The notes below the pieces were generated by a model. The model was not told the origin of the DNA. It did not search any database and was given only the letters and a program-made list of their open reading frames with translations. From Candidatus Methanophagales archaeon (GTDB lineage Archaea; Halobacteriota; Syntropharchaeia; Alkanophagales; Methanospirareceae), in assembly GCA_030621535.1 (NCBI GenBank), contig JAUXHM010000025.1, forward strand, positions 1-10,528: a stretch of 10,528 nucleotides of DNA, in the 5' to 3' direction. The position numbers and the translations under genes were made by a program. How positions within the stretch are numbered: the stretch's first letter is position 1; the number at the start of each line of letters is the position of its first letter. Of this stretch, positions 1 through 10,528 are shown in pieces.

Positions 1-611
1 GTTAGTTTGAGTTTATCGTCAATAATACTAACACAATCCAACGATTTCAATATATCTATATTGCTACCCTGCAATTCTTTACCCGAAACCTCTTTATATT
101 TTCTCTTAAACCATTTGACAGCCTTTAGATCAATATCCTCATAACTAGCTCCTTTAGAAATTTTAGAATCAAACTCTTGTTCATGTTTATTTAATATGAT
201 TCTTTCCAATTCCTCAGGAGGGACAACAACATTTTCAGTTCCAACTCTTTTGTAGGCAATTCCATCTAAATAGTAAGGTTTATTATCCCCTTCTTTTATT
301 TTAACTTCAATCACTTTCTTATCTCCAAATTCCAAAACTTCGATTTCAGGAGATATTTCGGTTTTTATTCTCTGCCTGATTTTCTGTGATATTGATTTTA
401 AGGTTTGATCAGAAACCGCTTGCCCAACAATTATTCCTTTATTTATTCCAAAATAAACTTTTCCTCCTTTATGGTTCAAGAAACCACAAACCGATTTTAG
501 AGCCCTATCTAATTGAGCGGTAGATTTTTTAAATTCTACTTCTTCTGATTCTCCTTTTTTAACCAATTCCGATAAATTTGGTCTCGTTCCTACTACCGAT
601 GCCATCTTCAT
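1..611 (-). CDS. Schlafen AlbA_2-domain putative ATP-binding protein, 3' end outside window, chimeric N-terminus
   Basis: Open from ATG 611-609 to the left edge (about 203 codons), so the C-terminus is missing. Residues 13-130 fit the AlbA_2 (Schlafen AAA_4) domain: LSELVKKGESEEVEFKKS, then CGFLNHKGGKVYFGI and IVGQ, then a DGIAYKRVGTEN stretch before a PPEEL motif. Family members are often annotated as ATP-binding proteins or RecG-like regulators; their biochemical role is poorly defined. The ATG overlaps the dehydrogenase stop (ATGA, 611-608). A second in-frame ATG at 605-603 has better spacing (9 nt) from the AGGAGG at 620-615. The first 12 residues, MKMASVVGTRPN, do not look like AlbA_2; they match the first strand of UDP-GlcNAc 2-epimerases, which favours the 611 start. 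The family call is firm. A link to the sugar pathway is only positional. Confidence 0.8.
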   Translation of the reverse strand, partial: MKMASVVGTRPNLSELVKKGESEEVEFKKSTAQLDRALKSVCGFLNHKGGKVYFGINKGIIVGQAVSDQTLKSISQKIRQRIKTEISPEIEVLEFGDKKVIEVKIKEGDNKPYYLDGIAYKRVGTENVVVPPEELERIILNKHEQEFDSKISKGASYEDIDLKAVKWFKRKYKEVSGKELQGSNIDILKSLDCVSIIDDKLKL

Positions 612-1795
612 TTTCCTCCTCTCCGCTCCATTTTCAATCCAAAGCAATCAAACACCAAATCCGCATCTTCGGGCATAATCCATCTTAACCCCATTTCCCC
701 TACCTCTTCACTCGAATACAATTCGTCATAAACATAAACGTCCAATCCGCGCTCCATCAGAAGCTTTGCCAGAGCCAAATTCCTGCTGTGATACAATTCC
801 TTCACGCCTTCTCTAAACGAAATCCCTTTTACACATATTTTCCGTTCGTTCAACGGCCTGTTTATCTTCATACATTCTAATTCTAAAACTATTTTCTCTG
901 CCCAATACCCAACCATCTCATCGTTTATTTCCCTCGCGGTTCTGAGCAACTTTGCATAATCGAACTTATCCCTCTTCTCCATCTCATTGACTAAAAACCA
1001 CGGATAGACTGGAATACAGTGGCCTCCAACACCCGTAGAAGGCAAATGAATGTGGCAGTATTCGTGGTTCGCATACGTTCTCGCCTCATAAAAATTCACG
1101 TCCAGCTCATCGGCAATCTTGAACAGCTCGTTCGCCAAACCGATGTTAACGTCTCGATAACACCCCTCCACGATTTTTATGAATTCCGCAACGCGTGCAG
1201 AAGAGACCAAATGCAGGTTCGGAATGAACTTCTGGTACGTCTCAAAAGCTTTCTGCCCACTTTCTTTATTTACACCTCCTACGACTTTAGGAAATTTCTC
1301 CAGACGTGAAATACTAAAACCCGTCATTATCCTTTCTGGCGAATATGCCAAATAGAATTCACCCAGTGCTAATCCGCTTTCTTCTTCCAGCCATTTTCTC
1401 GCACGTTCCTCCGTAGTCTTCGGTGGTACGCTCGTCTCTAAAACCACCAAATCTCCCTTATTTAATACTCTGCCGACGTTCCTGAATGCACTCTCTATGA
1501 TATGGTAATCGGGGTTGTTGTTTTCATCCGTAAACAGCGGCACAATTATAATGAATACCTCGCATTCTTTTGCATCGTCATACCTGGTGGTTGCAATTAA
1601 ATCCTTTCCTCCATGCCTCTTGATTAGCTCGTCCAGACCCATCTCCTCGGGAATTGGATTTTTACCCCCATTAATATCCGCACATTTTTTTTCGTCTATG
1701 TCCACGCCAATAACCTCAAAGCCACTGTTACTGTTCGCTATAACACTTGCAATAGGCAAGCCCGCCTTGCCCAGTCCGATTACTGCTATTTTCAT
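608..1795 (-). CDS. Nucleotide-sugar 6-dehydrogenase (UDP-GlcNAc/UDP-ManNAc type, WbpA/WecC-like)
   Basis: Predicted NAD-dependent four-electron oxidation of the C6 hydroxyl of a UDP-HexNAc to the uronic acid, the first step towards a diacetamido uronate. The N-terminus MKIAVIGLGKAGLP is a Rossmann dinucleotide fold. YSPERI (about residues 152-157) and RDVNIGLANEL (about 214-224) are family signatures, and GVGGHCIPVYPWFL carries the thioester-forming Cys (C260). About 395 residues is normal for the family. ATG 1795 is preferred because GGGTGG lies about 5 nt upstream and it starts directly at the Rossmann strand; GTG 1804 would add three residues. Compared with characterised UDP-glucose dehydrogenases, the Asn four residues after the catalytic Lys is Gly, and the Asp four residues after the catalytic Cys is Tyr. 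The sequence alone does not separate GlcNAc from ManNAc specificity; the aminotransferase, oxidoreductase and acetyltransferase neighbours favour UDP-GlcNAc. Confidence 0.9.
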   Translation of the reverse strand: MKIAVIGLGKAGLPIASVIANSNSGFEVIGVDIDEKKCADINGGKNPIPEEMGLDELIKRHGGKDLIATTRYDDAKECEVFIIIVPLFTDENNNPDYHIIESAFRNVGRVLNKGDLVVLETSVPPKTTEERARKWLEEESGLALGEFYLAYSPERIMTGFSISRLEKFPKVVGGVNKESGQKAFETYQKFIPNLHLVSSARVAEFIKIVEGCYRDVNIGLANELFKIADELDVNFYEARTYANHEYCHIHLPSTGVGGHCIPVYPWFLVNEMEKRDKFDYAKLLRTAREINDEMVGYWAEKIVLELECMKINRPLNERKICVKGISFREGVKELYHSRNLALAKLLMERGLDVYVYDELYSSEEVGEMGLRWIMPEDADLVFDCFGLKMERRGGK

Positions 1796-1801
1796 TATAA
1801 C

Positions 1802-1831
1802 CACCCGATTACACAGATTCTCACAAGATTC
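1802..1831. repeat. Imperfect 10-nt-period array (CACxxGATTx units), left copy
   Basis: Three consecutive 10-nt units on the plus strand: CACCCGATTA, CACAGATTCT and CACAAGATTC. This is the inverted partner of the array at 1934-1953. Similar GATTACAC-type short repeats occur in many environmental genomes. The array overlaps the upstream region and alternative GTG start of the dehydrogenase. Confidence 0.6.
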
Positions 1832-1861
1832 TCCTTCTTACATCCAAACTTTTCTTGGGTT

Positions 1862-1880
1862 AAGTCCTTATAAAGCCATT
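1862..1880 (-). promoter_or_regulatory. TATA-like element upstream of the dehydrogenase
   Basis: On the minus strand, GGCTTTATAAGGACTTAA lies about 70-85 nt upstream of the dehydrogenase ATG and resembles an archaeal TATA box. It could give an internal promoter for the dehydrogenase and AlbA_2 genes. It also falls inside the small 34-codon ORF, and AT-rich sequence is common here, so support is weak. Confidence 0.25.
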
Positions 1881-1895
1881 TTTCATTTGTATTAT

Positions 1896-2507
1896 TCATT
1901 TTTCTCTCTTCTGGCTAATATTCTTTTCTGTGTTAATCTCGTGTAATCTCGTGGTTTCTACTTCTTTTCCGCATTCACATTTATAAATTATTTTTTCATC
2001 GAAATCTTCTCTAATAATTTCACTCAGTTTCCTCCCGCAATAGCATACAAAACCTTTCAATTCCGCAGGATTGCCATATACCAATCCAAACGATGGCACA
2101 TCCTTTGTTACTACCGAACCCGCCCCCACCATTGCATAGTCGCCTATCGTCACACCACAGACAATTGTTGAATTCGCGCAAATGCTCGCTCCCTTCCTCA
2201 CCTCTGTTGGGACAATTTTATCCTCTCCCCAACTAAACGCCCTCGGATACAAATCATTCGTGAAAGTTACGGCAGGACCAATTAAAACATCATCCTCTAT
2301 CTTCACTCCCTTGTATACAGAAACGAAATTCTGGACTTTTACTCCGTTTCCAATCTCCACCTCCTCATCTATATACACGCTCTTCCCTATAACGCAATTT
2401 TTCCCTATCTTTGCTTTCTCCCGCACATGCGCAAAGTGCCATATTTTTGTCCCATCCCCTATATTGTCGCTTTCCACGACTGCCGTAGGATGCTTAAAGA
2501 ATGCCAT
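1896..2507 (-). CDS. Left-handed beta-helix N-acetyltransferase, WbpD/WlbB-like
   Basis: Predicted to transfer acetyl from acetyl-CoA to the 3-amino group of UDP-GlcNAc(3NH2)A, completing the diacetamido uronate. Residues 6-135 are hexapeptide repeats (IGDGTKIWHFAHV, IGKNCVIG, IGNGVKVQN, IGDYAMVGAGSVVTKDV). The FTND motif (N84) and VYGNPAELKGFVCYCG (144-158) are typical of the family. Two CxC pairs (C155/C157 and C177/C179) form a likely zinc site near the C-terminus. The last about 20 residues, from ETTRLHE on, are encoded by the GATTACAC-type repeat and are probably not native. The ATG at 2507-2505 has a good AAGGAGA about 5 nt upstream and overlaps the oxidoreductase end by 14 bp, so the two are likely translationally coupled. 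It would act in the cytosol, probably as a trimer as in its family. Confidence 0.9.
   Translation of the reverse strand: MAFFKHPTAVVESDNIGDGTKIWHFAHVREKAKIGKNCVIGKSVYIDEEVEIGNGVKVQNFVSVYKGVKIEDDVLIGPAVTFTNDLYPRAFSWGEDKIVPTEVRKGASICANSTIVCGVTIGDYAMVGAGSVVTKDVPSFGLVYGNPAELKGFVCYCGRKLSEIIREDFDEKIIYKCECGKEVETTRLHEINTEKNISQKREK
1934..1953. repeat. Perfect 10-nt tandem duplication (TAATCTCGTG x2), right copy
   Basis: TAATCTCGTG occurs twice in direct succession. On the minus strand it reads CACGAGATTA, the same unit type as the array at 1802-1831 but in the opposite orientation, so the two arrays form a loose inverted pair about 100 nt apart. It lies inside the acetyltransferase reading frame and encodes part of its C-terminal tail. 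Confidence 0.65.
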
Positions 2508-3417
2508 TTAATCTCCTTATTTCCTCACATATCTTTAAATTGTTCAATGCTTGCACAGGTGTGATTGGGAATTCCTCACCTTTCTTTACACACGCGATAA
2601 AAGTTTTTAATTCCTCCTTTAATGGCTCCACCTTGTTAACCAAAACTTTCTCAATGATATTCTCCTGTGTGTATCGCTCATTTTCTATGCCGTATTTCCC
2701 CGGCTTCCTATACACATAAATCTCTTGGTTCATGAAATCTCCTTCAATCGTGAACTCTTCCTCTTCAATGTATATCGCCCTGATTTTTTTCGACGCTTTT
2801 CTACTCGCAGACAGCGACACAATAGATGAATTAAGTTCAATTAACACTTTGCAGAGGTCGTTGTTCCCGGCACTGTACAGCTCATAGTCCCCGCTTATGG
2901 ACTTATACAAAACGTTAAATACAATATCAATGTCATGAATCATCAAATCTTCTACAATCGTGCTGTCTGTTATTCTTGCAGATGCTGGATTGTGCCTCTT
3001 GATCTCAACATAAAGTGGACTTTCGATTATTTTCTCTATCTCCTCCACTATCGGATTAAACCTCTCAATGTGACCAATGCCGACAATTAACCCCTTATCT
3101 TCCAACAAATTTACTAATTCCTCTCCTTCTCTAACGTTCAATGCAATTGGCTTTTCTATTAAGCTGTGAACATCTTTTTCAATCGCTCTTTTAGCGACCT
3201 CAAGATGATATTTTGTTGAAACGCAAATACTTACCGCATCAACTCGCTCCAAAAGCTCTTCCAGAGAATTGCAAATAATAACACCATACTCTTTCAATCT
3301 TTTCGCCTTCTCTCCATCAATGTCAAAGGCATAGACCTCCGCAATCTCTTTAAGTTCTGAATAGATTCGGACATGGTTCTTACCCATGGTTCCAGTCCCG
3401 ATAACGCCGACTTTCAT
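2494..3417 (-). CDS. Gfo/Idh/MocA-family oxidoreductase, WbpB-like nucleotide-sugar 3-dehydrogenase
   Basis: Predicted to oxidise the C3 hydroxyl of UDP-GlcNAcA with NAD, making the 3-keto substrate for the neighbouring aminotransferase. The N-terminal Rossmann motif GVIGTGTMGKNH (4-15), EKPIAL (88-93) and GHIERFNP (115-122) mark the family; the Lys of EKP is the usual catalytic/cofactor-binding residue. EDLMIHDIDI (156-165) holds the conserved His-Asp pair. The 307-residue length is usual. The start is set by overlap with the aminotransferase stop (ATGA, 3417-3414); there is no separate Shine-Dalgarno, which suggests reinitiation. Members of this broad family act on many sugars, so the substrate is inferred from the operon. 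Confidence 0.88.
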   Translation of the reverse strand: MKVGVIGTGTMGKNHVRIYSELKEIAEVYAFDIDGEKAKRLKEYGVIICNSLEELLERVDAVSICVSTKYHLEVAKRAIEKDVHSLIEKPIALNVREGEELVNLLEDKGLIVGIGHIERFNPIVEEIEKIIESPLYVEIKRHNPASARITDSTIVEDLMIHDIDIVFNVLYKSISGDYELYSAGNNDLCKVLIELNSSIVSLSASRKASKKIRAIYIEEEEFTIEGDFMNQEIYVYRKPGKYGIENERYTQENIIEKVLVNKVEPLKEELKTFIACVKKGEEFPITPVQALNNLKICEEIRRLNGIL

Positions 3418-4526
3418 TTTATTTGTTTATTTATTGTTTCCGTAATATACATTAAATCCTTTTCTGTTAGTGCCGGATGAACAGGTAAACTTAAAATCTT
3501 GTCAGATAAGGCTGTGGCCACAGGACACTTAGCGTTTTCGTCTGTATAGCCCAGTCGTTGGTACAGCGGTTGTTTATGTATTGGTAGTGGATAGTGAATG
3601 GCACACCCAATACCTTCCTTTTTTAGATACCCCATGAACTCGTCTCTTGACATTGGAAATCCTTCCTCAATTGTAACTGCATACTGATGATAAACGTGCT
3701 TAACTCCCTTTTTCCTATGCGGGAGTTCGAGTCCGGATACCTTTAAGTGTTGATTAAGATATTCTGCATTTCTTATTCTCTTTTCGTTAAATCTACCCAA
3801 TTTCTTTAATTGCGCAACGCCAATCGCAGCCTGTATATCCGTCATTCGGTAATTGTATCCCAGCATCGTATGATAATACTTCTGATTTTCGCCATGACTT
3901 CTGAGCAACCCGCACACCTTTGCTATTTCGTCACTGTCGGTTGTTATCATCCCTCCTTCTCCCGTAGTCATGTTCTTTGTAGCATAAAAAGAGAAACAAC
4001 CCGCAACTCCAAACCTTCCCACTTTCTTGCCTTCATATTCGGCACCGTGCGCTTGAGCACAATCTTCGATTAAATATACATTGTAATCTTCACAGATGTC
4101 TTGTATCTCTTTCACATCAAACGGGTGACCAAATAGATGCACGGCTATAATTGCTTTTGTTTTATCCGTTATCTTCTCTACGACATCTTCCGGATTTATA
4201 TTGAATGTTCTTGCATCCACATCTGCAAAAACAGGTTTAGCTTCCTGGAACAGAACAGCGTTTGCCGTGGATATAAACGTAAAAGAAGGAACAATAACCT
4301 CATCTCCTTGTTTTATGCCCAATGACTTGAGTGCAATATCCAAAGAAATTGTGCCATTGCCGACTGCTACCGCATTTTTAACACCAACATATTTAACAAA
4401 AGCAGTTTCAAATTCTTCGACTACTTTTCCCTGTGCGAGCATTCCTGACTTAAGGACTTCAGCAACTGCTTGGATTTCATCATTGCCTATTATAGGTTTT
4501 GCAATTGGAATCATTTTTTCCTTCAT
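3414..4526 (-). CDS. DegT/DnrJ/EryC1/StrS-family PLP aminotransferase, WbpE-like
   Basis: Predicted PLP-dependent transfer of an amino group (probably from glutamate) to the 3-keto sugar nucleotide, giving UDP-GlcNAc(3NH2)A. Features are MIPIAKPIIG near the N-terminus, GNGTISLDIAL (57-67, cofactor phosphate region), IEDCAQAHGA (153-162, Asp155 contacting the PLP ring) and FYATKNMTTGEGG (180-192) with Schiff-base Lys184. The C-terminal YPLPIHKQPLY is typical of sugar aminotransferases. ATG 4526 overlaps the preceding stop (ATGA). The second ATG at 4514 gives the family's usual MIPIAKP start and has GAAGGA just upstream, so it may be the true one. Substrate identity rests on the neighbouring dehydrogenase, oxidoreductase and acetyltransferase. 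Confidence 0.92.
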   Translation of the reverse strand: MKEKMIPIAKPIIGNDEIQAVAEVLKSGMLAQGKVVEEFETAFVKYVGVKNAVAVGNGTISLDIALKSLGIKQGDEVIVPSFTFISTANAVLFQEAKPVFADVDARTFNINPEDVVEKITDKTKAIIAVHLFGHPFDVKEIQDICEDYNVYLIEDCAQAHGAEYEGKKVGRFGVAGCFSFYATKNMTTGEGGMITTDSDEIAKVCGLLRSHGENQKYYHTMLGYNYRMTDIQAAIGVAQLKKLGRFNEKRIRNAEYLNQHLKVSGLELPHRKKGVKHVYHQYAVTIEEGFPMSRDEFMGYLKKEGIGCAIHYPLPIHKQPLYQRLGYTDENAKCPVATALSDKILSLPVHPALTEKDLMYITETINKQIK

Positions 4527-4880: not shown

Positions 4881-5576
4881 TCACCATTCCCCCTTGTCAG
4901 TCATTTTTGGCTTATTTTCTCCTGTCAGCCAATTTTGGGTTATAAAATCAACAAAAGTATCCTCCGCTCCTTTCAATAACTTATATTTACTCCTTTTTAA
5001 TATCTTAGAAAGGGTTTGTTTTTTTATTCCTATACCCCTCGCTACCTCTTCCAACGTGACATTGCTCTTCTCATTTTTCACTTTTCTGTAATATGTTACA
5101 ATTTCTCTCTGCCTTTTAGTCCAACTCCACATCACATCTACCATGAAATTCAATAAACACGTAACAACCCCTTCAATTTCCCACTCACTTTTGAATACAA
5201 CCCATATATTTTCTTTCTTTGCCCTTTCTAACGCGTCAGATGCTTTATGAAAAGATTCGCCATCTATCTCTCCGACATTTTCGCTTAAACTTGTAGATAT
5301 GCCACCAATGCCAATTCCCAAATAGAATTGATGACGGATGTTTTCAAAAAACACATAATAAATATCGAACAGATATTTTGGTGAGAAAAGCATCCCCTGA
5401 AAACTATCCCCTCCTACAACCATAAATTTTGCAGGTATCTCTTCCTCAAATCTGCTGTTGACTATTCTCAAAGCATTTTTTAATTCTTCTTGAACTTCCG
5501 CTCTGTCCTTCAACTTTCTCGAAGACTTCAGATCGCCAGTTACAACCACATACCTGTTCTGCAATGTACGAGTCAT
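4881..5576 (-). CDS. SatD-family protein with C-terminal helix-turn-helix
   Basis: 231 residues. The N-terminal about 130 residues fit the SatD family: VVVTGDLKSSRKLKDR (10-25), a Phe-rich strand leading to GGDSFQGML (55-63), LGIGIGGIST (86-95) and GEIDGESFHKASDALERAK (102-120). D15 and D57, each after Gly, sit where class III nucleotide cyclases and other palm domains place metal-binding Asp residues; that comparison is my inference. Residues 150-205 (WTKRQREIVTYY to LEEVARGIGIKKQTLSKIL) form a sigma-region-4-like helix-turn-helix, suggesting DNA binding. The start ATG directly follows the glycosyltransferase stump's TAA (TAA|ATG) with no visible Shine-Dalgarno, so translation may depend on the upstream stump. 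The next gene is the DUF3307-like membrane protein, one base away. No biochemical role is established. Confidence 0.75.
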   Translation of the reverse strand: MTRTLQNRYVVVTGDLKSSRKLKDRAEVQEELKNALRIVNSRFEEEIPAKFMVVGGDSFQGMLFSPKYLFDIYYVFFENIRHQFYLGIGIGGISTSLSENVGEIDGESFHKASDALERAKKENIWVVFKSEWEIEGVVTCLLNFMVDVMWSWTKRQREIVTYYRKVKNEKSNVTLEEVARGIGIKKQTLSKILKRSKYKLLKGAEDTFVDFITQNWLTGENKPKMTDKGEW

Positions 5577-6016: not shown

Positions 6017-6475
6017 ATGAAGGTGAAGATGAAGCGGGTGGATGAGATAATAGAGAGATATAAGGGGGAAGAAGGAGTTTTAATTCAGTTGCTGTTGGAT
6101 ATACAAAGCGAGTTCAATTGGATTCCCCATGGAGTGATTGCACGAATAAGCGAGAAGATGCGGATTCCGACGAGTCAAATATATCGAATAGCAAGTTTTT
6201 ACAAGGCGATGAGCTTGAATCCGGTTGGTCGTCATATAATACATGTATGTCTGGGTACTGCCTGTCAGGTGCGTGGTGCACCGAAGATTCTGGACCGGGT
6301 GGAAGAGAATTTGAAGATAAAAGAGGGGAGTACTACAGCAGACATGCGATTTAGTTTGAGGAGAGTGAATTGCCTTGGTTGCTGTGCCATGGGACCGGTG
6401 GTAGTAGTTGATGGGAATTATCACGGCAAGATAACTCCGGCAATGGTAGAAGATATTTTAGAGAAATACGAGTAA
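6017..6475 (+). CDS. NuoE/HydC-like [2Fe-2S] subunit of an NAD(H)-linked complex
   Basis: 152 residues, normal for the family. A helical N-terminal bundle (about 6-65, VDEIIERYKGEEGVLIQLLLDIQ to IYRIASFYKAM) is followed by a thioredoxin-like [2Fe-2S] domain with C78-x4-C83 and C119-x3-C123. HVCLGTACQVRGA and NCLGCCAMGPVVVVDG are close to family consensus. The subunit usually passes electrons next to the FMN subunit encoded just downstream, and it acts in the cytosol. The start is uncertain: ATG 6017 has only a distant AAGGG, while ATG 6029 has AAGGTGA immediately upstream and would remove four residues. First gene of a three-gene operon in the order seen for hydC-hydB-hydA. Confidence 0.93.
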   Translation: MKVKMKRVDEIIERYKGEEGVLIQLLLDIQSEFNWIPHGVIARISEKMRIPTSQIYRIASFYKAMSLNPVGRHIIHVCLGTACQVRGAPKILDRVEENLKIKEGSTTADMRFSLRRVNCLGCCAMGPVVVVDGNYHGKITPAMVEDILEKYE

Positions 6476-6488
6476 AGAGGGGGTGGAA

Positions 6489-8429
6489 ATGCCAAGATTA
6501 AACTCGAAAGAGGACTTGAAGGCGCTGAGAAGAAAGATTATAGGTGTGCGAGACTTGAATAAGCCATACATTACGCTCTGTTCCGGAACGGCATGTCATG
6601 CCACGGGTAGTGATGCGGTTGCTGCGGCAATACAGAAGGAATTGGAGAAGCAATGTTTAACGGGAGAGGTAGGCGTACGGAGGACAGGTTGTCATGGCTT
6701 TTGTGAGCGAGGACCTATTATTATCATTTATCCCGGGGAGATATGCTATCTCAATGTAACGCCCGAAGATGTGCCAGAGATTATCTCAAAGACCATAAAA
6801 GGAAGGGAGATTATAGAGCGGTTACTTTACGCTGATCCCAACACGGGAGAGCAAATGGTTCATGAGCAGGATATTCCATTTTACAAATATCAAACCCGGC
6901 TTGTTTTTAGCGGTAACCTGTGGGTTGACCCGACAAATATAGAAGATTACATCGCACTTGGTGGATATCGAGCGTTAGCTAAAGTATTGCATGAGATGAC
7001 ACCAGAGGAAGTGCTGGAAGAAGTGAAGCGTGCAAATTTGCGGGGTAGGGGCGGCGGTGGTTTTCCCGCTGGACGGAAATGGGAGACCACCCGGGATGCT
7101 TCTGGCGAACCCAAATATGTGATAGTCAATTGTGATGAAGGCGACCCGGGAGCCTATATGGACAGGTCAATAATGGAAGGAAATCCACACAGGGTTCTTG
7201 AGGGTTTAACTATCGCTGCTTATGCCATCGGTGCTACCCAGGGATTCGTTTACGTACGCCAGGAGTATCCACTGGCAGTGAGTAATCTTGCGATTGCACT
7301 CGAACAAGCGAAGGAATACGGCTTACTTGGAGAGGACATACTGGGTTCGGGATTCGAGTTCGATGTGAAGGTGCATCGAGGTGCAGGAGCGTTTGTTTCT
7401 GGTGAGTCCAGCGCTTTGATGAATGCGATAGAAGGAAAAGTGGGCGAGCCAAGACCTAAATACGTTCATACTTCAGAAGCGGGCATCTGGGATAAACCAA
7501 GCAATTTAAATAACGTGGAGACGTTGGCAAATGTGCCGCTGATAATCGAAAAAGGTGCTGATTGGTTCGGCTCGATTGGAACGGAAGGCAGTAAAGGAAC
7601 GAAGATTTTCTCGCTCGTGGGCACGGTAAACAATACGGGTTTAGTGGAAGTGCCAATGGGAACGACGCTGCGCGACATCATATATAAAATAGGTGGGGGG
7701 ATTCGGGGCGGTAAGAGATTCAAAGGTGTGCAAACAGGCGGACCCTCAGGCGGAATAATTCCAGAGCAATATCTTGATTCGCCGGTGGATTTCGATGAAC
7801 TCACGAAGTTGGGTTCGATGATGGGCTCTGGAGGTATGATTGCTATAGACGAAGATACGTGTATCGTAGATTTAGCACGCTATTTCGTGGATTTTCTCTG
7901 CGATGAATCGTGTGGCAAGTGCGTGCCCTGCCGTGAGGGCTTAAAGCGTATGCGTGAGATATTAGAAGATATAGTTGCCGGACGCGGAAAAGAGGGAGAT
8001 ATTGAGCTGCTCAAAGAAATAGCGGTGGTGATGAAAGAGGCATCGCTGTGTGCGTTGGGAACGACAGCCGCTAATCCGACTTTGAGCACCATCAGGTACT
8101 TTAGAGATGAATATGAAGCGCATATAAAGGAGAAAAGATGCCCGGCGCTGGTTTGTAAGGACTTGATTTCATATTATATAGACCCAGAGAAGTGCATAGC
8201 TTGTTTGAAGTGTCTGAAGAACTGCCCTGAAGGTGCAATAGAGGGAGAGAAAAGAGTAATACACGTGATTGAGCAATCGAAATGCGTAAAGTGCGGGATT
8301 TGCTATGACGTTTGCCCGCCTAAAGTCGGGGCAGTAAAGAAAATATCGGGCAGGCCAGTTCCTCCGTCGTTACCCGAAGCGGAGAGGGCGATAAGAAAAG
8401 GAAAGAAAAAGGGAGGGGGGAGTGATTGA
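6489..8429 (+). CDS. NuoF/HydB-like FMN, NAD(H)-binding Fe-S flavoprotein
   Basis: About 646 residues, far longer than respiratory NuoF (around 440) because of extra domains. Counting from GTG 6483: a thioredoxin-like [2Fe-2S] domain (C33-x4-C38, C70-x3-C74); the NuoF core with FMN/NADH motif RGRGGGGFPAGRKW (187-200) and NCDEGDPGAYMDR (216-228); an SLBB-like region (about 375-435); the [4Fe-4S] site CGKCVPC (C477, C480, C483) plus C523; an H547/C553/C558 group that could bind zinc, as in HydB; and two ferredoxin-type [4Fe-4S] sites (C571-C574-C577-C581 and C601-C604-C607-C611). This layout is that of HydB/HndC, the bifurcating subunit of HydABC-type enzymes, not of complex I. ATG 6489 is chosen because GAGG ends 8 nt upstream. 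The tail is Lys/Gly-rich. It likely oxidises or reduces NAD(H), passing electrons to the downstream Fe-S/F420 subunit. Confidence 0.93.
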   Translation: MPRLNSKEDLKALRRKIIGVRDLNKPYITLCSGTACHATGSDAVAAAIQKELEKQCLTGEVGVRRTGCHGFCERGPIIIIYPGEICYLNVTPEDVPEIISKTIKGREIIERLLYADPNTGEQMVHEQDIPFYKYQTRLVFSGNLWVDPTNIEDYIALGGYRALAKVLHEMTPEEVLEEVKRANLRGRGGGGFPAGRKWETTRDASGEPKYVIVNCDEGDPGAYMDRSIMEGNPHRVLEGLTIAAYAIGATQGFVYVRQEYPLAVSNLAIALEQAKEYGLLGEDILGSGFEFDVKVHRGAGAFVSGESSALMNAIEGKVGEPRPKYVHTSEAGIWDKPSNLNNVETLANVPLIIEKGADWFGSIGTEGSKGTKIFSLVGTVNNTGLVEVPMGTTLRDIIYKIGGGIRGGKRFKGVQTGGPSGGIIPEQYLDSPVDFDELTKLGSMMGSGGMIAIDEDTCIVDLARYFVDFLCDESCGKCVPCREGLKRMREILEDIVAGRGKEGDIELLKEIAVVMKEASLCALGTTAANPTLSTIRYFRDEYEAHIKEKRCPALVCKDLISYYIDPEKCIACLKCLKNCPEGAIEGEKRVIHVIEQSKCVKCGICYDVCPPKVGAVKKISGRPVPPSLPEAERAIRKGKKKGGGSD

Positions 8430-8431
8430 GG

Positions 8432-9850
8432 GTGTTGAAATTAGAAATTGATGGTAAAGCGGTAGAGGTAGAAGCAGAGAAAGGAAAAACCATCCTGGAA
8501 GCTGCGAAAAGCATCGGCATTGATATACCTACTCTATGTTATCATCCTGCCTTAGAACCCTTTGGCGCCTGCAGATTATGCTCGGTGGAAATAGAGAAAC
8601 GGGGCAGGAAAAAGATTGTCACTGCCTGTAATTATCCCGTTGAAGATGGACTGGCGGTAAACACCAAATCGCCGGAGATTATCGAGATAAGAAAAATGCT
8701 CTTAGAACTGCTGCTGGCAAGATGCCCGGAAGAGGGCAAAATACAGCGTCTGGCGCATGAACATGGCGTTGTGAAGCCGCGATTTAAATTGGAAGACGAG
8801 CGGTGTATTCTTTGCGGATTGTGTACACGGGTTTGCGAGGAGTTAGTGGGTGTCTCAGCCATAAACGTTATAAATCGCGGTGTGGAGCGAGCCATTGGAA
8901 CACCTTACATGGAGCTATCAGATGATTGCATTGGTTGCGGTTCGTGTGCGCTTGTATGCCCTACGGAAGCAATAAAGAGGGAAAAGAACATATACCCAAC
9001 GACGGCGGAAGATACGAGGGCAATCGAAGACAGATTCTTAGAAGGTGAGCGAGATGCTGAACTGGGCGTTTACACCGATTTAATCGCGGGAAAGAGCTCT
9101 TTGGACGGTCAAGATGGAGGAATAGTCTCCTCGCTGCTTATTTCTGGCATAAAAAATAACTTGTTTGACGCTGCGCTGGTCGTGCATCGAAAAGATGGCT
9201 ATGGCTATAAAGCCGAGGCAGTTGTAGTTGAGGATGTAGCAGGGATAAGACGCGCGCAAGGCACGAAATATTTGCGCGTGCCGATGATGTCGAAACTAGA
9301 AGAAGCGTTAAAGGCAGGCAAGAGGAGAATAGCCGTTGTCGGCACGCCCTGCGAAGTCCGCGCGGTGCGGAAGATACAGCAACAGCGGGATTTGGAACGT
9401 GAATTTCCCGGGGTAGAGATTACTCTGCTGGGCTTATTCTGTTTTGAAAGTTTCGATTACGAAGGTTTAAAGGAACGGACGAAACGTGAATTTGGCGTTG
9501 ACCTTGATAAAGCGGATAAGACGCAGATAACCAAGGGGAAATATATCGTTACGGTAGATGGCGAGGATTATTCATGTGACGTGCGAGCGTTTGAGGATGT
9601 GGTGAGCGAAGGATGTCCTTACTGCGACGATTTCGTGTCCCGACTTGCAGACATCTCTATCGGCTCGGTTGGAAGTACAGATGGATATTCTACGGTGATT
9701 GTGCGGTCGGAAGTTGGGAAAAAGCTTCTGGACGCGACTGAGTTCGTCCAGGCTGAAGTGACTAAGAAAGAGATTGTAAAACTAGTAAGGTTTAAAAAGA
9801 AAAGAGCAGATAAGAATTTTGCAGTGATTATGGATGGTTTGGCGACATAG
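8432..9850 (+). CDS. HoxU/HydA-like Fe-S domain fused to FrhB-type F420 oxidoreductase domain
   Basis: About 472 residues; positions count from TTG 8426. Residues 1-80 are a plant-type [2Fe-2S] ferredoxin (C38, C49, C52, C68) as in NuoG, HoxU and HydA. The usual NuoG His-Cys3 cluster region (about 90-115, LLARCPEEGKIQRLAHEHG) keeps only one Cys. Two [4Fe-4S] sites follow: C127/C130/C133/C137 and C168/C171/C174/C178. From about 212 comes a full FrhB/FdhB-type domain: DGQDGGIVSSLL (228-239), GTKYLRVPM (279-287), VVGTPCEVRAVRK (304-316), GLFCFESF (336-343), CPYCDDFVSRLADISIGSVG (397-416). C309, C339, C397 and C400 can hold the FrhB [4Fe-4S]; FAD and F420 binding follow from the family. It overlaps or abuts the HydB-like gene; GTG 8432 is preferred, with GGAG 9 nt upstream. 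It probably links NAD(H) electrons to F420. No hydrogenase H-cluster motif is present. Confidence 0.9.
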   Translation: MLKLEIDGKAVEVEAEKGKTILEAAKSIGIDIPTLCYHPALEPFGACRLCSVEIEKRGRKKIVTACNYPVEDGLAVNTKSPEIIEIRKMLLELLLARCPEEGKIQRLAHEHGVVKPRFKLEDERCILCGLCTRVCEELVGVSAINVINRGVERAIGTPYMELSDDCIGCGSCALVCPTEAIKREKNIYPTTAEDTRAIEDRFLEGERDAELGVYTDLIAGKSSLDGQDGGIVSSLLISGIKNNLFDAALVVHRKDGYGYKAEAVVVEDVAGIRRAQGTKYLRVPMMSKLEEALKAGKRRIAVVGTPCEVRAVRKIQQQRDLEREFPGVEITLLGLFCFESFDYEGLKERTKREFGVDLDKADKTQITKGKYIVTVDGEDYSCDVRAFEDVVSEGCPYCDDFVSRLADISIGSVGSTDGYSTVIVRSEVGKKLLDATEFVQAEVTKKEIVKLVRFKKKRADKNFAVIMDGLAT

Positions 9851-9985: not shown

Positions 9986-10528
9986 TCAGGATTTCAACCA
10001 CATACCTGCGAGCAATCCGAAAAAAAGACCTGATAAATGTGCCGTATGCGCAATCATATCGCCTGAACCAATCATAAAGAAATCATAGAGGGCGAAGAGA
10101 ATAACCACCATCCAGATTTCCAGCGGTACAATAAAGAACAAATATACCCGCATTCTCGGCATCAGCACCGCAAGAGTAGCGAATATCCCCATTAATGCTC
10201 CACTTGCACCAACCGCCGGACTAACTGAAGTCAAACTCCAGCCAATCCCTGCAAAAATGCCTGCGAGGAAAAAGATGAGCAGAAATTTCGAACTTCCTAT
10301 TTTCCGCTCTAATACCGGAGCGAAGAAGAAAAATACGAGCATATTGATAAAAAAATGCTCGAAGCTCCCGTGCAGGAATAGGTGTGTTACCAGTGTCCAG
10401 GGTCTTTCCATTACAAGTGTCGGATTCAGGATTAATAGTTCGGTATAGTATGGACGCGGAATAAGCAATTGTAAAACAAAAGAGATGGACATGAGAAACA
10501 AAATCAAGAACGAATAGTTACCGGCGAA
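9986..10528 (-). CDS. Rhomboid-family intramembrane serine protease, 5' end outside window
   Basis: The frame is open to the right edge (FAGNYSF precedes the first internal TTG at 10507-10505), so the true start lies beyond the window. From that TTG there are 173 residues with about six membrane segments. HGSFEHFFINM carries the His/Asn pair (H51, N55) that helps form the oxyanion site in rhomboids. GASGALMG holds the nucleophile S102, and AHTAHLSG near the C-terminus holds the catalytic His (H157). All key residues are present, so an active protease that cuts membrane-embedded substrates is likely; the substrate is unknown. It converges on the F420/NAD operon, and nothing ties it to that complex. 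Confidence 0.9.
   Translation of the reverse strand, partial: FAGNYSFLILFLMSISFVLQLLIPRPYYTELLILNPTLVMERPWTLVTHLFLHGSFEHFFINMLVFFFFAPVLERKIGSSKFLLIFFLAGIFAGIGWSLTSVSPAVGASGALMGIFATLAVLMPRMRVYLFFIVPLEIWMVVILFALYDFFMIGSGDMIAHTAHLSGLFFGLLAGMWLKS

What the first reader, a model, noticed from the sequence alone, without database searches (positions are those of the whole stretch)
6017..9850. HydABC-like complex with an F420 module in place of the hydrogenase
The three genes keep the order and domains of hydC-hydB-hydA, including HydB's N-terminal [2Fe-2S] domain and two C-terminal [4Fe-4S] sites that mark the electron-bifurcating type. The third subunit swaps the H-cluster domain for a complete FrhB domain. 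From known potentials of NAD, F420 and ferredoxin, the complex could couple F420H2/F420 to NAD(H) alone, or split/merge electrons between NAD(H), ferredoxin and F420. The Fe-S and motif content is directly visible; the bifurcation is inference.
Basis: partly seen in the sequence, partly recalled or inferred. Interest (0 to 1): 0.78.

Follow-up and report, generated by a model that had tools for sequence, protein, structure and literature searches.

The report
F420-linked electron-bifurcating complex of ANME-1
A three-gene operon of a methane-oxidising archaeon encodes a predicted relative of electron-splitting hydrogenases in which the hydrogen-making part is replaced by a module for the methanogen coenzyme F420, a kind of enzyme that has been predicted before but seems not to have been purified.

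Summary
Genes 6017-6475, 6483-8429 and 8426-9850 encode HydC, HydB and a HydA N-terminus fused to a complete FrhB (F420) domain; the window is a whole contig of an ANME-1-type MAG. The flavin subunit meets published residue criteria for bifurcating enzymes, which E. coli NuoF fails. One ligand position of the unusual B2 site differs: Val498 instead of Cys/Thr.

The kind is already named. Schut et al. 2022 (PMC9304861) predicted "F420-Bfu" from two Methanosaetaceae sequences; Chadwick et al. 2022 (PMC9012536) listed FrhB8 beside "divergent NuoF" in ANME without a function.

Added here: the two are probably one system. It occurs in 22 of 36 genomes of the window's family, and in Methanothrix, Methanolliviera and Bathyarchaeota. 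The fusion was made at least twice from different FrhB paralogues (AU p 4e-17). None of 19 genomes with the main type has RnfC; none of 36 (many incomplete) has Mer or Fno over cut-off. Most likely it reversibly couples F420 to NAD(H) plus ferredoxin; making F420H2 would fill two gaps stated for ANME-1. Role, direction and bifurcation are inferred.

The parts
6017..6475 (+). BfuC (HydC/NuoE-like, 152 aa), [2Fe-2S] ligands C78, C83, C119, C123
   Evidence: Pfam PF01257 E 4e-50; the four Cys kept in 45 of 45 distinct rows; best PDB match HydC of a bifurcating hydrogenase
6483..8429 (+). BfuB (HydB/NuoF-like, 648 aa): N-terminal [2Fe-2S], FMN/NAD(H) site, B1 [4Fe-4S], B2 site, two C-terminal [4Fe-4S]
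   Evidence: A224, M226, F304, GGPSG419-423, H547, C460, C553, C558 and the eight C-terminal Cys in 42 of 42 distinct near-full-length rows; E. coli NuoF lacks them
6558..6791 (+). BfuB N-terminal [2Fe-2S] thioredoxin-like domain (residues 26-103)
   Evidence: PF01257 E 5e-10
7974..7976 (+). Val498 of BfuB, at the position of the B2-cluster ligand Cys476 of the A. mobile enzyme (Thr in FeFe enzymes)
   Evidence: Ungapped stretch of the HMMER alignment to 7t2r_B; Val in 33 of 42, Cys in 7, Ile in 1, Thr in 1 distinct rows
8172..8327 (+). BfuB C-terminal two-[4Fe-4S] domain (residues 564-615), presumed ferredoxin-side clusters B3/B4
   Evidence: Pfam Fer4 hits; C571-C611 in 42 of 42
8426..9850 (+). 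BfuA (474 aa): HydA-type N-terminus fused to FrhB
   Evidence: Pfam, PDB; 39 of 39 near-full-length rows keep the twelve N-terminal and four FrhB-domain Fe-S Cys and QDGG
8426..8983 (+). BfuA N-terminal part (1-186): [2Fe-2S] C38/49/52/68 and two [4Fe-4S] C127-137, C168-178
   Evidence: fits the A1, A2, A4 set that Schut et al. give for clade 45
9038..9763 (+). FrhB (F420/FAD) domain of BfuA (205-446): QDGG 229-232, GTKY 279-282, [4Fe-4S] C309/339/397/400
   Evidence: Pfam; Foldseek: the 12 best matches are all F420 enzymes; FrhB FAD-loop description in PMC3930138

Best explanation
The operon encodes a Type 1 'F420-Bfu' enzyme (BfuC-BfuB-BfuA), a member of the HydABC/Bfu family. NAD(H) binds at the FMN of BfuB, and ferredoxin is presumed to dock at the C-terminal clusters of BfuB. 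F420 exchanges hydride with an FAD in the C-terminal FrhB domain of BfuA. Electrons run FAD - FrhB [4Fe-4S] - two ferredoxin-type [4Fe-4S] - BfuA [2Fe-2S] - BfuB B1 cluster - FMN. The FMN with its neighbouring clusters splits or merges them: NADH + 2 Fd(red) + 2 F420 <-> NAD+ + 2 Fd(ox) + 2 F420H2. Shown from sequence: genes, domains, ligands, conservation, family. Inferred from the family: three substrates, electron path and bifurcation. Inferred from physiology: in ANME-1 it most often runs towards F420H2, which Fqo can then oxidise. NAD versus NADP is not settled by the sequence.
For: The published BF residue criteria are met in 42 of 42 BfuB rows, and E. coli NuoF fails them. Four of five B2 ligands, including the His said to be absent from non-bifurcating homologues, are present. 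Best structure relatives of B and C are subunits of bifurcating enzymes. The BfuA cofactor set fits the one given for clade 45, which contains F420-Bfu. The FrhB domain keeps QDGG and the cluster Cys in 39 of 39; its 12 best structural matches are all F420 enzymes. An FrhB paralogue of similar build (ferredoxin domain plus F420-reductase domain), bound to CO dehydrogenase, was shown to reduce F420 in Ca. Ethanoperedens. The fusion was made at least twice, which points to selection for joining the two.
Against: No purified member was found in print. Val498 removes one B2 ligand of the [2Fe-2S] cluster that Schut et al. think plays a key role, and they describe that position as Cys or Thr only in the passages read. 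F420-contacting residues are not known from the structures read (pocket empty in Frh and Fsr), so substrate identity rests on homology. Having an FrhB neighbour does not prove F420 coupling in ANME-1: Chadwick et al. report FrhB7 beside CODH subunits in ANME-1, yet CO-coupled F420 reduction was not detected in ANME-1 or ANME-2 enrichment extracts (PMC11493965, unreplicated for ANME). The AlphaFold2 model is poor at the ferredoxin clusters (pLDDT below 50 at 126-130 and 144-190), so the electron path was not measured. In L019 and L036 BfuA stands apart from BfuCB.
Confidence: 0.74

Rival explanations
1. A plain NAD(P)H:F420 oxidoreductase: same parts, but ferredoxin is not used and no bifurcation occurs; it replaces the missing Fno of ANME-1.
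For: Fno over cut-off in 0 of 36 genomes of the window's family. Val498 breaks the five-ligand B2 site in the window and in 33 of 42 rows, which could mean loss of the bifurcating mechanism. NADH to F420 alone costs only about 8 to 15 kJ with the potentials tried, so pool ratios could drive it.
Against: The C-terminal ferredoxin-type clusters and the B2 His and three Cys are kept in 42 of 42; Schut et al. say non-bifurcating homologues lack B2-B5. The residue criteria of Losey et al. point to bifurcating. Methanotrichaceae carry both F420-Bfu and Fno (8 of 8 genomes tested), so it is not simply an Fno substitute.
Confidence: 0.13
2. The FrhB domain does not use F420 but another carrier (a ferredoxin or another small molecule), as in the plant HCAR branch of the fold.
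For: HCAR is in the structural hit list from rank 13. FrhB paralogues in ANME-1 are many and mostly untested (PMC9012536). CO-coupled F420 reduction was not seen in ANME-1 extracts although FrhB7 lies beside CODH genes there.
Against: F420 enzymes fill ranks 1-12 with higher identity, 29-34% against 20-21%. The tree puts the domain among archaeal FrhB paralogues. FrhB modules on CODH and Fwd of Ca. Ethanoperedens were shown to reduce F420.
Confidence: 0.08
3. Same F420-Bfu enzyme, but in vivo it runs the other way: F420H2 is split into NADH and reduced ferredoxin for biosynthesis, because the cell makes F420H2 from methane and has no Fno. (This rival concerns direction only; its odds are not exclusive of the best explanation's enzyme.)
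For: Reaction energies are small (about -4 to -19 kJ per 2 F420H2 with the potentials tried), so the ratio of the pools decides; ANME-1 need NAD(P)H and reduced ferredoxin for anabolism (general knowledge).
Against: Methane oxidation itself makes reduced ferredoxin, and ANME-1 MetF is thought to make NAD(P)H in excess of need, with no settled return path. Schut et al. propose the F420-reducing direction for Methanosaetaceae.
Confidence: 0.3

Closest known systems
F420-Bfu (Type 1 Bfu, BfuB clade 45; Schut et al. 2022, PMC9304861)
   Same: BfuCB core plus BfuA carrying a C-terminal F420-reducing FAD domain, with only the A1, A2 and A4 clusters in BfuA; archaeal.
   Different: Reported from two sequences and placed in Methanosaetaceae, as a prediction; the window is ANME-1. 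Val at a B2 ligand position is not mentioned in the passages read.
FrhB8 'NuoF-Trx' gene cluster of ANME (Chadwick et al. 2022, PMC9012536)
   Same: FrhB paralogue clustered with a divergent NuoF and a thioredoxin-like gene, almost only in ANME; very probably the same genes.
   Different: No bifurcation, NAD or ferredoxin role was assigned, and no link to Bfu or to the MetF/Fno question was made in the sections read. Identity by accession was not checked (no supplement look-ups allowed).
HydABC bifurcating [FeFe]-hydrogenase (T. kivui 8a6t, T. maritima 7p5h)
   Same: HydB and HydC over nearly full length, B-subunit ligands.
   Different: No H-cluster domain; BfuA lacks the His-Cys3 cluster motif (recalled); Val at position 498, where 8a6t has Thr.
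Wor-Bfu, electron-bifurcating tungsten aldehyde oxidoreductase (9mqx)
   Same: Closest solved BfuA N-terminus; Schut et al. place Wor-Bfu in clade 45 with F420-Bfu.
   Different: Its third reaction sits in extra tungsten subunits, not in BfuA (Schut et al.).
F420-reducing CODH zeta subunit of Ca. Ethanoperedens (8riu; PMC11493965)
   Same: Two [4Fe-4S] plus FrhB module added to a non-F420 enzyme; best Foldseek match of BfuA.
   Different: Serves CO dehydrogenase; no NAD site, no Bfu core.

Membership tests
Bfu (BfuABC) family | BfuC with one [2Fe-2S], encoded beside BfuB | tested here: met
   PF01257 E 4e-50; ligands in 45 of 45 rows; adjacent in the window and in 25 of 37 loci, several of the rest cut by contig edges
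Bfu (BfuABC) family | BfuB with B1, B3, B4 [4Fe-4S] and B5 [2Fe-2S] plus FMN fold | tested here: met
   Pfam domains. B1, B3 and B4 Cys in 42 of 42; N-terminal Cys C70/C74 in 42 of 42 and C33/C38 in 41 of 42, the exception being the distant L109
Bfu (BfuABC) family | B2 site: His plus Cys ligands (H525, C438, C531, C536, and C476 or Thr in A. mobile numbering) | tested here: inconclusive
   H547, C460, C553, C558 present in 42 of 42; the fifth position is Val498 in the window and Val in 33 of 42, so one stated ligand is not met
Bfu (BfuABC) family | Losey et al. residues: A/E and M near NADH site, F near FMN, GGPSG | tested here: met
   A224, M226, F304, G419-G423 in 42 of 42; E. coli NuoF has T, K, Y, GGAGT. 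F304 was equated with T. maritima HydB F367 by motif; no alignment to that protein was printed
Bfu (BfuABC) family | Bifurcation between NAD(H), ferredoxin and a third substrate | not testable with these tools
   Needs a purified enzyme
F420-Bfu (Type 1) | BfuA carries an F420-reducing FAD domain in place of the H-cluster domain | tested here: met
   PF04422 and PF04432; 39 of 39 rows keep QDGG and the four FrhB cluster Cys
F420-Bfu (Type 1) | BfuA has only A1, A2 and A4 clusters besides the catalytic domain | tested here: met
   Cys content of BfuA against the statement for clade 45; which motif is A1, A2 or A4 was not given in the passages and is my reading
F420-Bfu (Type 1) | BfuB falls in clade 45 of the published tree | not tested
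   The published alignment was not available; no supplement look-ups allowed
F420-Bfu (Type 1) | F420 is the third substrate | not testable with these tools
   Homology only
HydABC [FeFe]-hydrogenase | H-cluster domain in subunit A | tested here: not met
   No H-cluster domain among Pfam hits of BfuA; TIGR02512 matches only residues 122-192, far under cut-off (47 of 406 bits)
Complex I (NuoEFG) | NuoF without N-terminal [2Fe-2S] and C-terminal clusters; NuoG with molybdopterin-fold domain (recalled) | tested here: not met
   BfuB has the extra domains and scores under the NuoF cut-off (470 of 559 bits); BfuA has an FrhB domain instead

The most novel reading that the evidence does not exclude
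F420-Bfu is the catabolic confurcating junction of Rnf-less ANME-1. It merges NAD(P)H from MetF with reduced ferredoxin from formyl-methanofuran oxidation into F420H2 for Fqo, replacing both Rnf and Fno, and closing the electron balance of reverse methanogenesis in these archaea. It does so with a B2 site lacking the fifth ligand, so the current Bfu mechanism would need revision. The same design evolved twice, the second time inside a pyruvate oxidoreductase operon.
Probability: 0.3. Interest if true: 0.82.

Novelty: new member of a known kind. Interest (0 to 1): 0.5.

Why it matters
How ANME-1, a major group of sea-floor methane oxidisers, returns the electrons of its MetF step and of reduced ferredoxin to energy conservation is stated as open in a main comparative study (PMC9012536, sections read). 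A soluble enzyme with NAD(H), ferredoxin and F420 sites is a direct candidate, and three adjacent genes make it expressible. It is also a natural test of the Bfu mechanism: a group with Val where Cys or Thr is thought to hold the B2 cluster. No biochemical test of F420 in this family was found in the searches made here.

Tried and rejected
Rejected: an ordinary NuoEFG/complex I module (BF-type residues and extra clusters). Rejected: a hydrogenase (no H-cluster domain). Considered: F420-Bfu as a simple replacement of Fno. It fits ANME-1 (0 of 36 over cut-off) but not Methanotrichaceae, where 8 of 8 genomes tested have both; of the three other genomes in that call G069 also has Fno, the Bathyarchaeota (G067) and Methanolliviera (G068) ones have none over cut-off. 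Considered: complementarity with Rnf. RnfC is over cut-off in 0 of 19 genomes with the main-type enzyme and in 6 of 17 without it. The Fisher p of 0.006 ignores kinship, and the six lie in only two genera (g3, g5), so few independent events stand behind it; 11 of 36 genomes have neither, and two of the six with RnfC (G007, G034) carry the second-type F420-Bfu.

Checked for MetF linkage: MetV-MetF lies 5.7 kb downstream of F420-Bfu on one contig (L096) with other genes between; not an operon. NAD or NADP preference could not be read from the sequence. The AlphaFold2 model (mean pLDDT 75.8, 30 sequences) is unreliable over the ferredoxin clusters, so no distances were taken from it. The BfuB tree does not resolve how the F420, HdrA-type and glutamate-synthase-type branches relate. 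In my scripts the group now called HdrA-type was labelled 'Nfn'; some searches showed that label to be wrong. Row filters: BfuB rows aligning under about 590 residues, BfuA rows under about 430, BfuC rows under about 125, FrhB domains under 75% of the profile and N-termini under 70% were left out before counting; the numbers dropped were not printed. The first AU test (p 8e-65) left the G038 row on the other side and so was too harsh; one search repeats it with all fused rows held together (p 4e-17). Both used groups named after the tree was seen. In the 19 main-type genomes three BfuA are cut by contig ends before much or part of the FrhB domain or its start is seen (G004 residues 2-213, G031 3-310, and G032/G023 only 112-472); they were counted by identity (76-94%).
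Full report
WHAT IS THERE. The 10,528-base window is a complete contig (C62) of a 1.09 Mb, 60.6% complete MAG. Its nearest named relatives are ANME-1/Methanophagales genomes (BfuA 91-95% identical). Three co-directional genes at 6017-6475, 6483-8429 and 8426-9850 encode 152, 648 and 474 residues. The proteins are HydC/NuoE; HydB with N-terminal [2Fe-2S] and two C-terminal [4Fe-4S]; and a HydA-type N-terminus ([2Fe-2S], two [4Fe-4S]) followed by a complete FrhB domain. The other genes of the window are on the other strand and of other families.

IS THE CORE OF THE BIFURCATING TYPE? Losey et al. 2020 (PMC7311640; passages and one section) give residues that separate bifurcating from non-bifurcating beta subunits. 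Schut et al. 2022 (PMC9304861; abstract, passages and first parts of sections 4-6) give cluster ligands. In 42 distinct near-full-length BfuB sequences (the window and 41 relatives, shorter ones left out) A224, M226, F304 and GGPSG are invariant, as are the B1, B3 and B4 cysteines and H547, C460, C553 and C558 of the B2 site. E. coli NuoF, used as a negative control, has T, K, Y and GGAGT, none of the B2 residues, and no C-terminal clusters. One position differs from the published description. The fifth B2 ligand, Cys476 in the A. mobile enzyme (Thr in FeFe enzymes), is Val498 here. It is Val in 33 of 42, Ile in 1 (L039), Cys in 7 and Thr in 1. Cys occurs in six loci of the short-BfuA type and in L110; Thr in the distant L109. 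So four of five B2 ligands are kept. Schut et al. say Thr stands there in about two thirds of 1,558 sequences; what the rest hold was not in the passages read.

THE THIRD SUBUNIT. In 39 distinct near-full-length BfuA sequences the twelve N-terminal Fe-S cysteines, the QDGG motif and the four FrhB-domain cysteines are invariant. In Frh the QDGG loop and a Cys134 loop surround the FAD (PMC3930138, passages). The cofactor set fits the A1/A2/A4 set that Schut et al. report for clade 45, where F420-Bfu lies. An AlphaFold2 model (mean pLDDT 75.8, better over the FrhB domain, poor over residues 126-130 and 144-190) finds as its 12 best Foldseek matches only F420 enzymes: Ethanoperedens CODH and Fwd modules, Fsr and FrhB. 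The plant enzyme HCAR, a ferredoxin enzyme as I recall, begins at rank 13. FrhB modules bound to CO dehydrogenase and formylmethanofuran dehydrogenase of Ca. Ethanoperedens were shown to reduce F420 (PMC11493965, abstract and passages). That makes F420 the best guess here. Two cautions: no F420-bound structure was found in the papers read, and the same paper did not detect CO-coupled F420 reduction in ANME-1 or ANME-2 extracts, although Chadwick et al. report an FrhB paralogue (FrhB7) beside CODH subunits in ANME-1. A neighbouring FrhB is thus not proof of F420 coupling; a fused one is stronger.

DISTRIBUTION. The genome scan found 37 relatives: ANME-1/Methanophagales and MAGs labelled Methanosarcinales, Methanomicrobia or Methanomicrobiales, Methanothrix and other Methanotrichaceae, Methanolliviera, and a Bathyarchaeota MAG. 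The protein database adds further entries named Bathyarchaeota (1,217 proteins at E <= 1e-10 for the FrhB part, the best 120 listed). In the window's family (36 genomes including its own, completeness 59-98%), BfuA with FrhB occurs in 22: 19 of the main type and 3 of a second type; four of the 19 are partial at contig ends. G012 has only a BfuB at 90% identity. Schut et al. count two F420-Bfu sequences and place them in Methanosaetaceae.

TWO ORIGINS. In a tree of 85 FrhB domains, 39 main-type BfuA domains form one group (100/99). That group nests among ANME-1 FrhB paralogues, several of them beside HdrA-like genes, including MetV-MetF-HdrA-FrhB clusters. The BfuA domains of ANME-1 genus g3 (three genomes) and of G038 lie in another clade, next to FrhB paralogues. 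In five of the seven of these that I fetched (L116, L117, L119, L120, L121) a TPP-enzyme gene (a pyruvate-oxidoreductase-type subunit) lies beside the FrhB gene, the Pfor type of Chadwick et al. Holding all 43 fused domains together costs 188 log units (AU p 4e-17; groups named after seeing the tree). In the N-terminal-domain tree g3 and G038 group with other Bfu types (97/90 with Bathyarchaeota, 99/92 without), away from the main F420 type, though holding the main type with Bathyarchaeota as one clade is not rejected (AU p 0.08). In one g3 genome (G007, L107) four pyruvate oxidoreductase subunit genes run directly into BfuC and BfuB, the BfuA lying on another contig. So FrhB was joined to BfuA at least twice (or swapped), the second time from, and apparently inside, a pyruvate oxidoreductase cluster.

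PHYSIOLOGY. Chadwick et al. 2022 (PMC9012536; sections 10, 13 and 38 and passages read) state that ANME-1 lack Fno, replace Mer by MetF, mostly lack Rnf, and that how NADPH electrons return is an important open question and ferredoxin recycling needs another mechanism. They name FrhB8 in clusters with divergent NuoF and thioredoxin genes, without a role. On the 36 genomes here: Mer over cut-off 0 (three weak matches), Fno over cut-off 0, MetF in 31, RnfC in 6. None of the 19 genomes with the main enzyme has RnfC; 6 of 17 without it do (Fisher 0.006, not corrected for kinship, two genera only). With the potentials in Schut's Table 1 (-280, -500, -360 mV) NADH + Fd(red) -> 2 F420H2 yields about -12 kJ per four electrons, while NADH -> F420 alone costs about +15 kJ per two electrons. 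Confurcation would therefore let ANME-1 put both pools onto F420H2. Against a simple story: 8 of 8 Methanotrichaceae genomes with the enzyme also have Fno, and 14 of the 36 family genomes, some incomplete, gave no BfuA-FrhB.

NOVELTY. The kind is in print as a prediction (F420-Bfu). In the held library that term occurs in one paper, BfuABC with 'electron bifurcating' in three, and FrhB with NuoF and F420 in one. Of these, PMC9304861, PMC11406978 and PMC9012536 were seen as passages and sections, PMC10734219 only as a listing; none links the ANME cluster with Bfu in what I saw. A broader search listed 15 of 36 papers, of which only two were opened (PMC9012536 and PMC12054007), so a mention elsewhere is possible. 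New here, as far as seen: the unification, the wider distribution, the twofold origin, the Val at the B2 ligand, and the link to the electron-return question. Hence 'new member of a known kind', interest 0.5.

Noticed in passing
L102:3444-8573 (G011) and L103:504-7529 (G008), ANME-1: A different Bfu: BfuA N-terminus fused to the C-terminal two thirds of HdrA (51-65% identical to three of four ANME-1 HdrA-like proteins compared, 34-36% to the fourth; 57% to the full HdrA-like protein two genes upstream of BfuC in L103), with the N-terminal third of HdrA as a separate gene just upstream of BfuC (69-87% to three, 39-40% to the fourth). It would hold both an HdrA flavin and a Bfu core; HdrA is not named as a partner in the parts of Schut et al. 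read.
   Followed up: partly
L107:7883-12865 (G007, ANME-1 genus g3): Pyruvate oxidoreductase subunit genes (POR, a two-[4Fe-4S] ferredoxin, POR_N/PFOR_II, TPP_enzyme_C) run directly into BfuC and BfuB; the FrhB domain of g3 BfuA is of the pyruvate-oxidoreductase-linked type. A possible pyruvate-F420-Bfu complex.
   Followed up: partly
L091:4052-13072 (G020), L092 (G033), L093 (G019, cut after FrhB): MetV-MetF-HdrA-FrhB-HdrA-HdrA-MvhD cluster in ANME-1 genomes (domains scanned in L091, the others by similarity); Chadwick et al. state that none of their ANME-1 genomes has MetF in a cluster with HdrA. Its FrhB is among the nearest paralogues of the main BfuA FrhB domain.
   Followed up: partly
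L104:3387-8044; similar short-BfuA loci L105, L079, L081-L083 (ANME-1): BfuC-BfuB with a short BfuA (about 224-247 aa), followed in L104, the only one scanned, by a glutamate-synthase-domain protein: a possible bifurcating glutamate synthase. These BfuB have Cys at the fifth B2 position.
   Followed up: partly
L110 (G038:C174) and L144 (G038:C220): Aldehyde ferredoxin oxidoreductase gene upstream of BfuC-BfuB-BfuA; the BfuA start overlaps the FrhB-bearing BfuA of another contig by 41 identical residues, so an aldehyde oxidoreductase may feed an F420-Bfu.
   Followed up: partly
L101:7961-9355 and L100:6589-8970 (G021); L019:6230-7624: BfuA-FrhB on a contig stretch without BfuB/BfuC; in G021 BfuC-BfuB lie on another contig followed by a pyridine nucleotide-disulphide oxidoreductase. 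The G021 BfuB hit was listed with one in-frame TGA.
   Followed up: partly
window 608-4526: Sugar-nucleotide gene set on the minus strand: UDP-sugar dehydrogenase, hexapeptide acyltransferase, GFO/IDH/MocA oxidoreductase, DegT aminotransferase.
   Followed up: no
window 4881-5576, 3-647, 9986-10528: SatD-family protein, an AlbA/Schlafen-domain protein, and a rhomboid protease.
   Followed up: no
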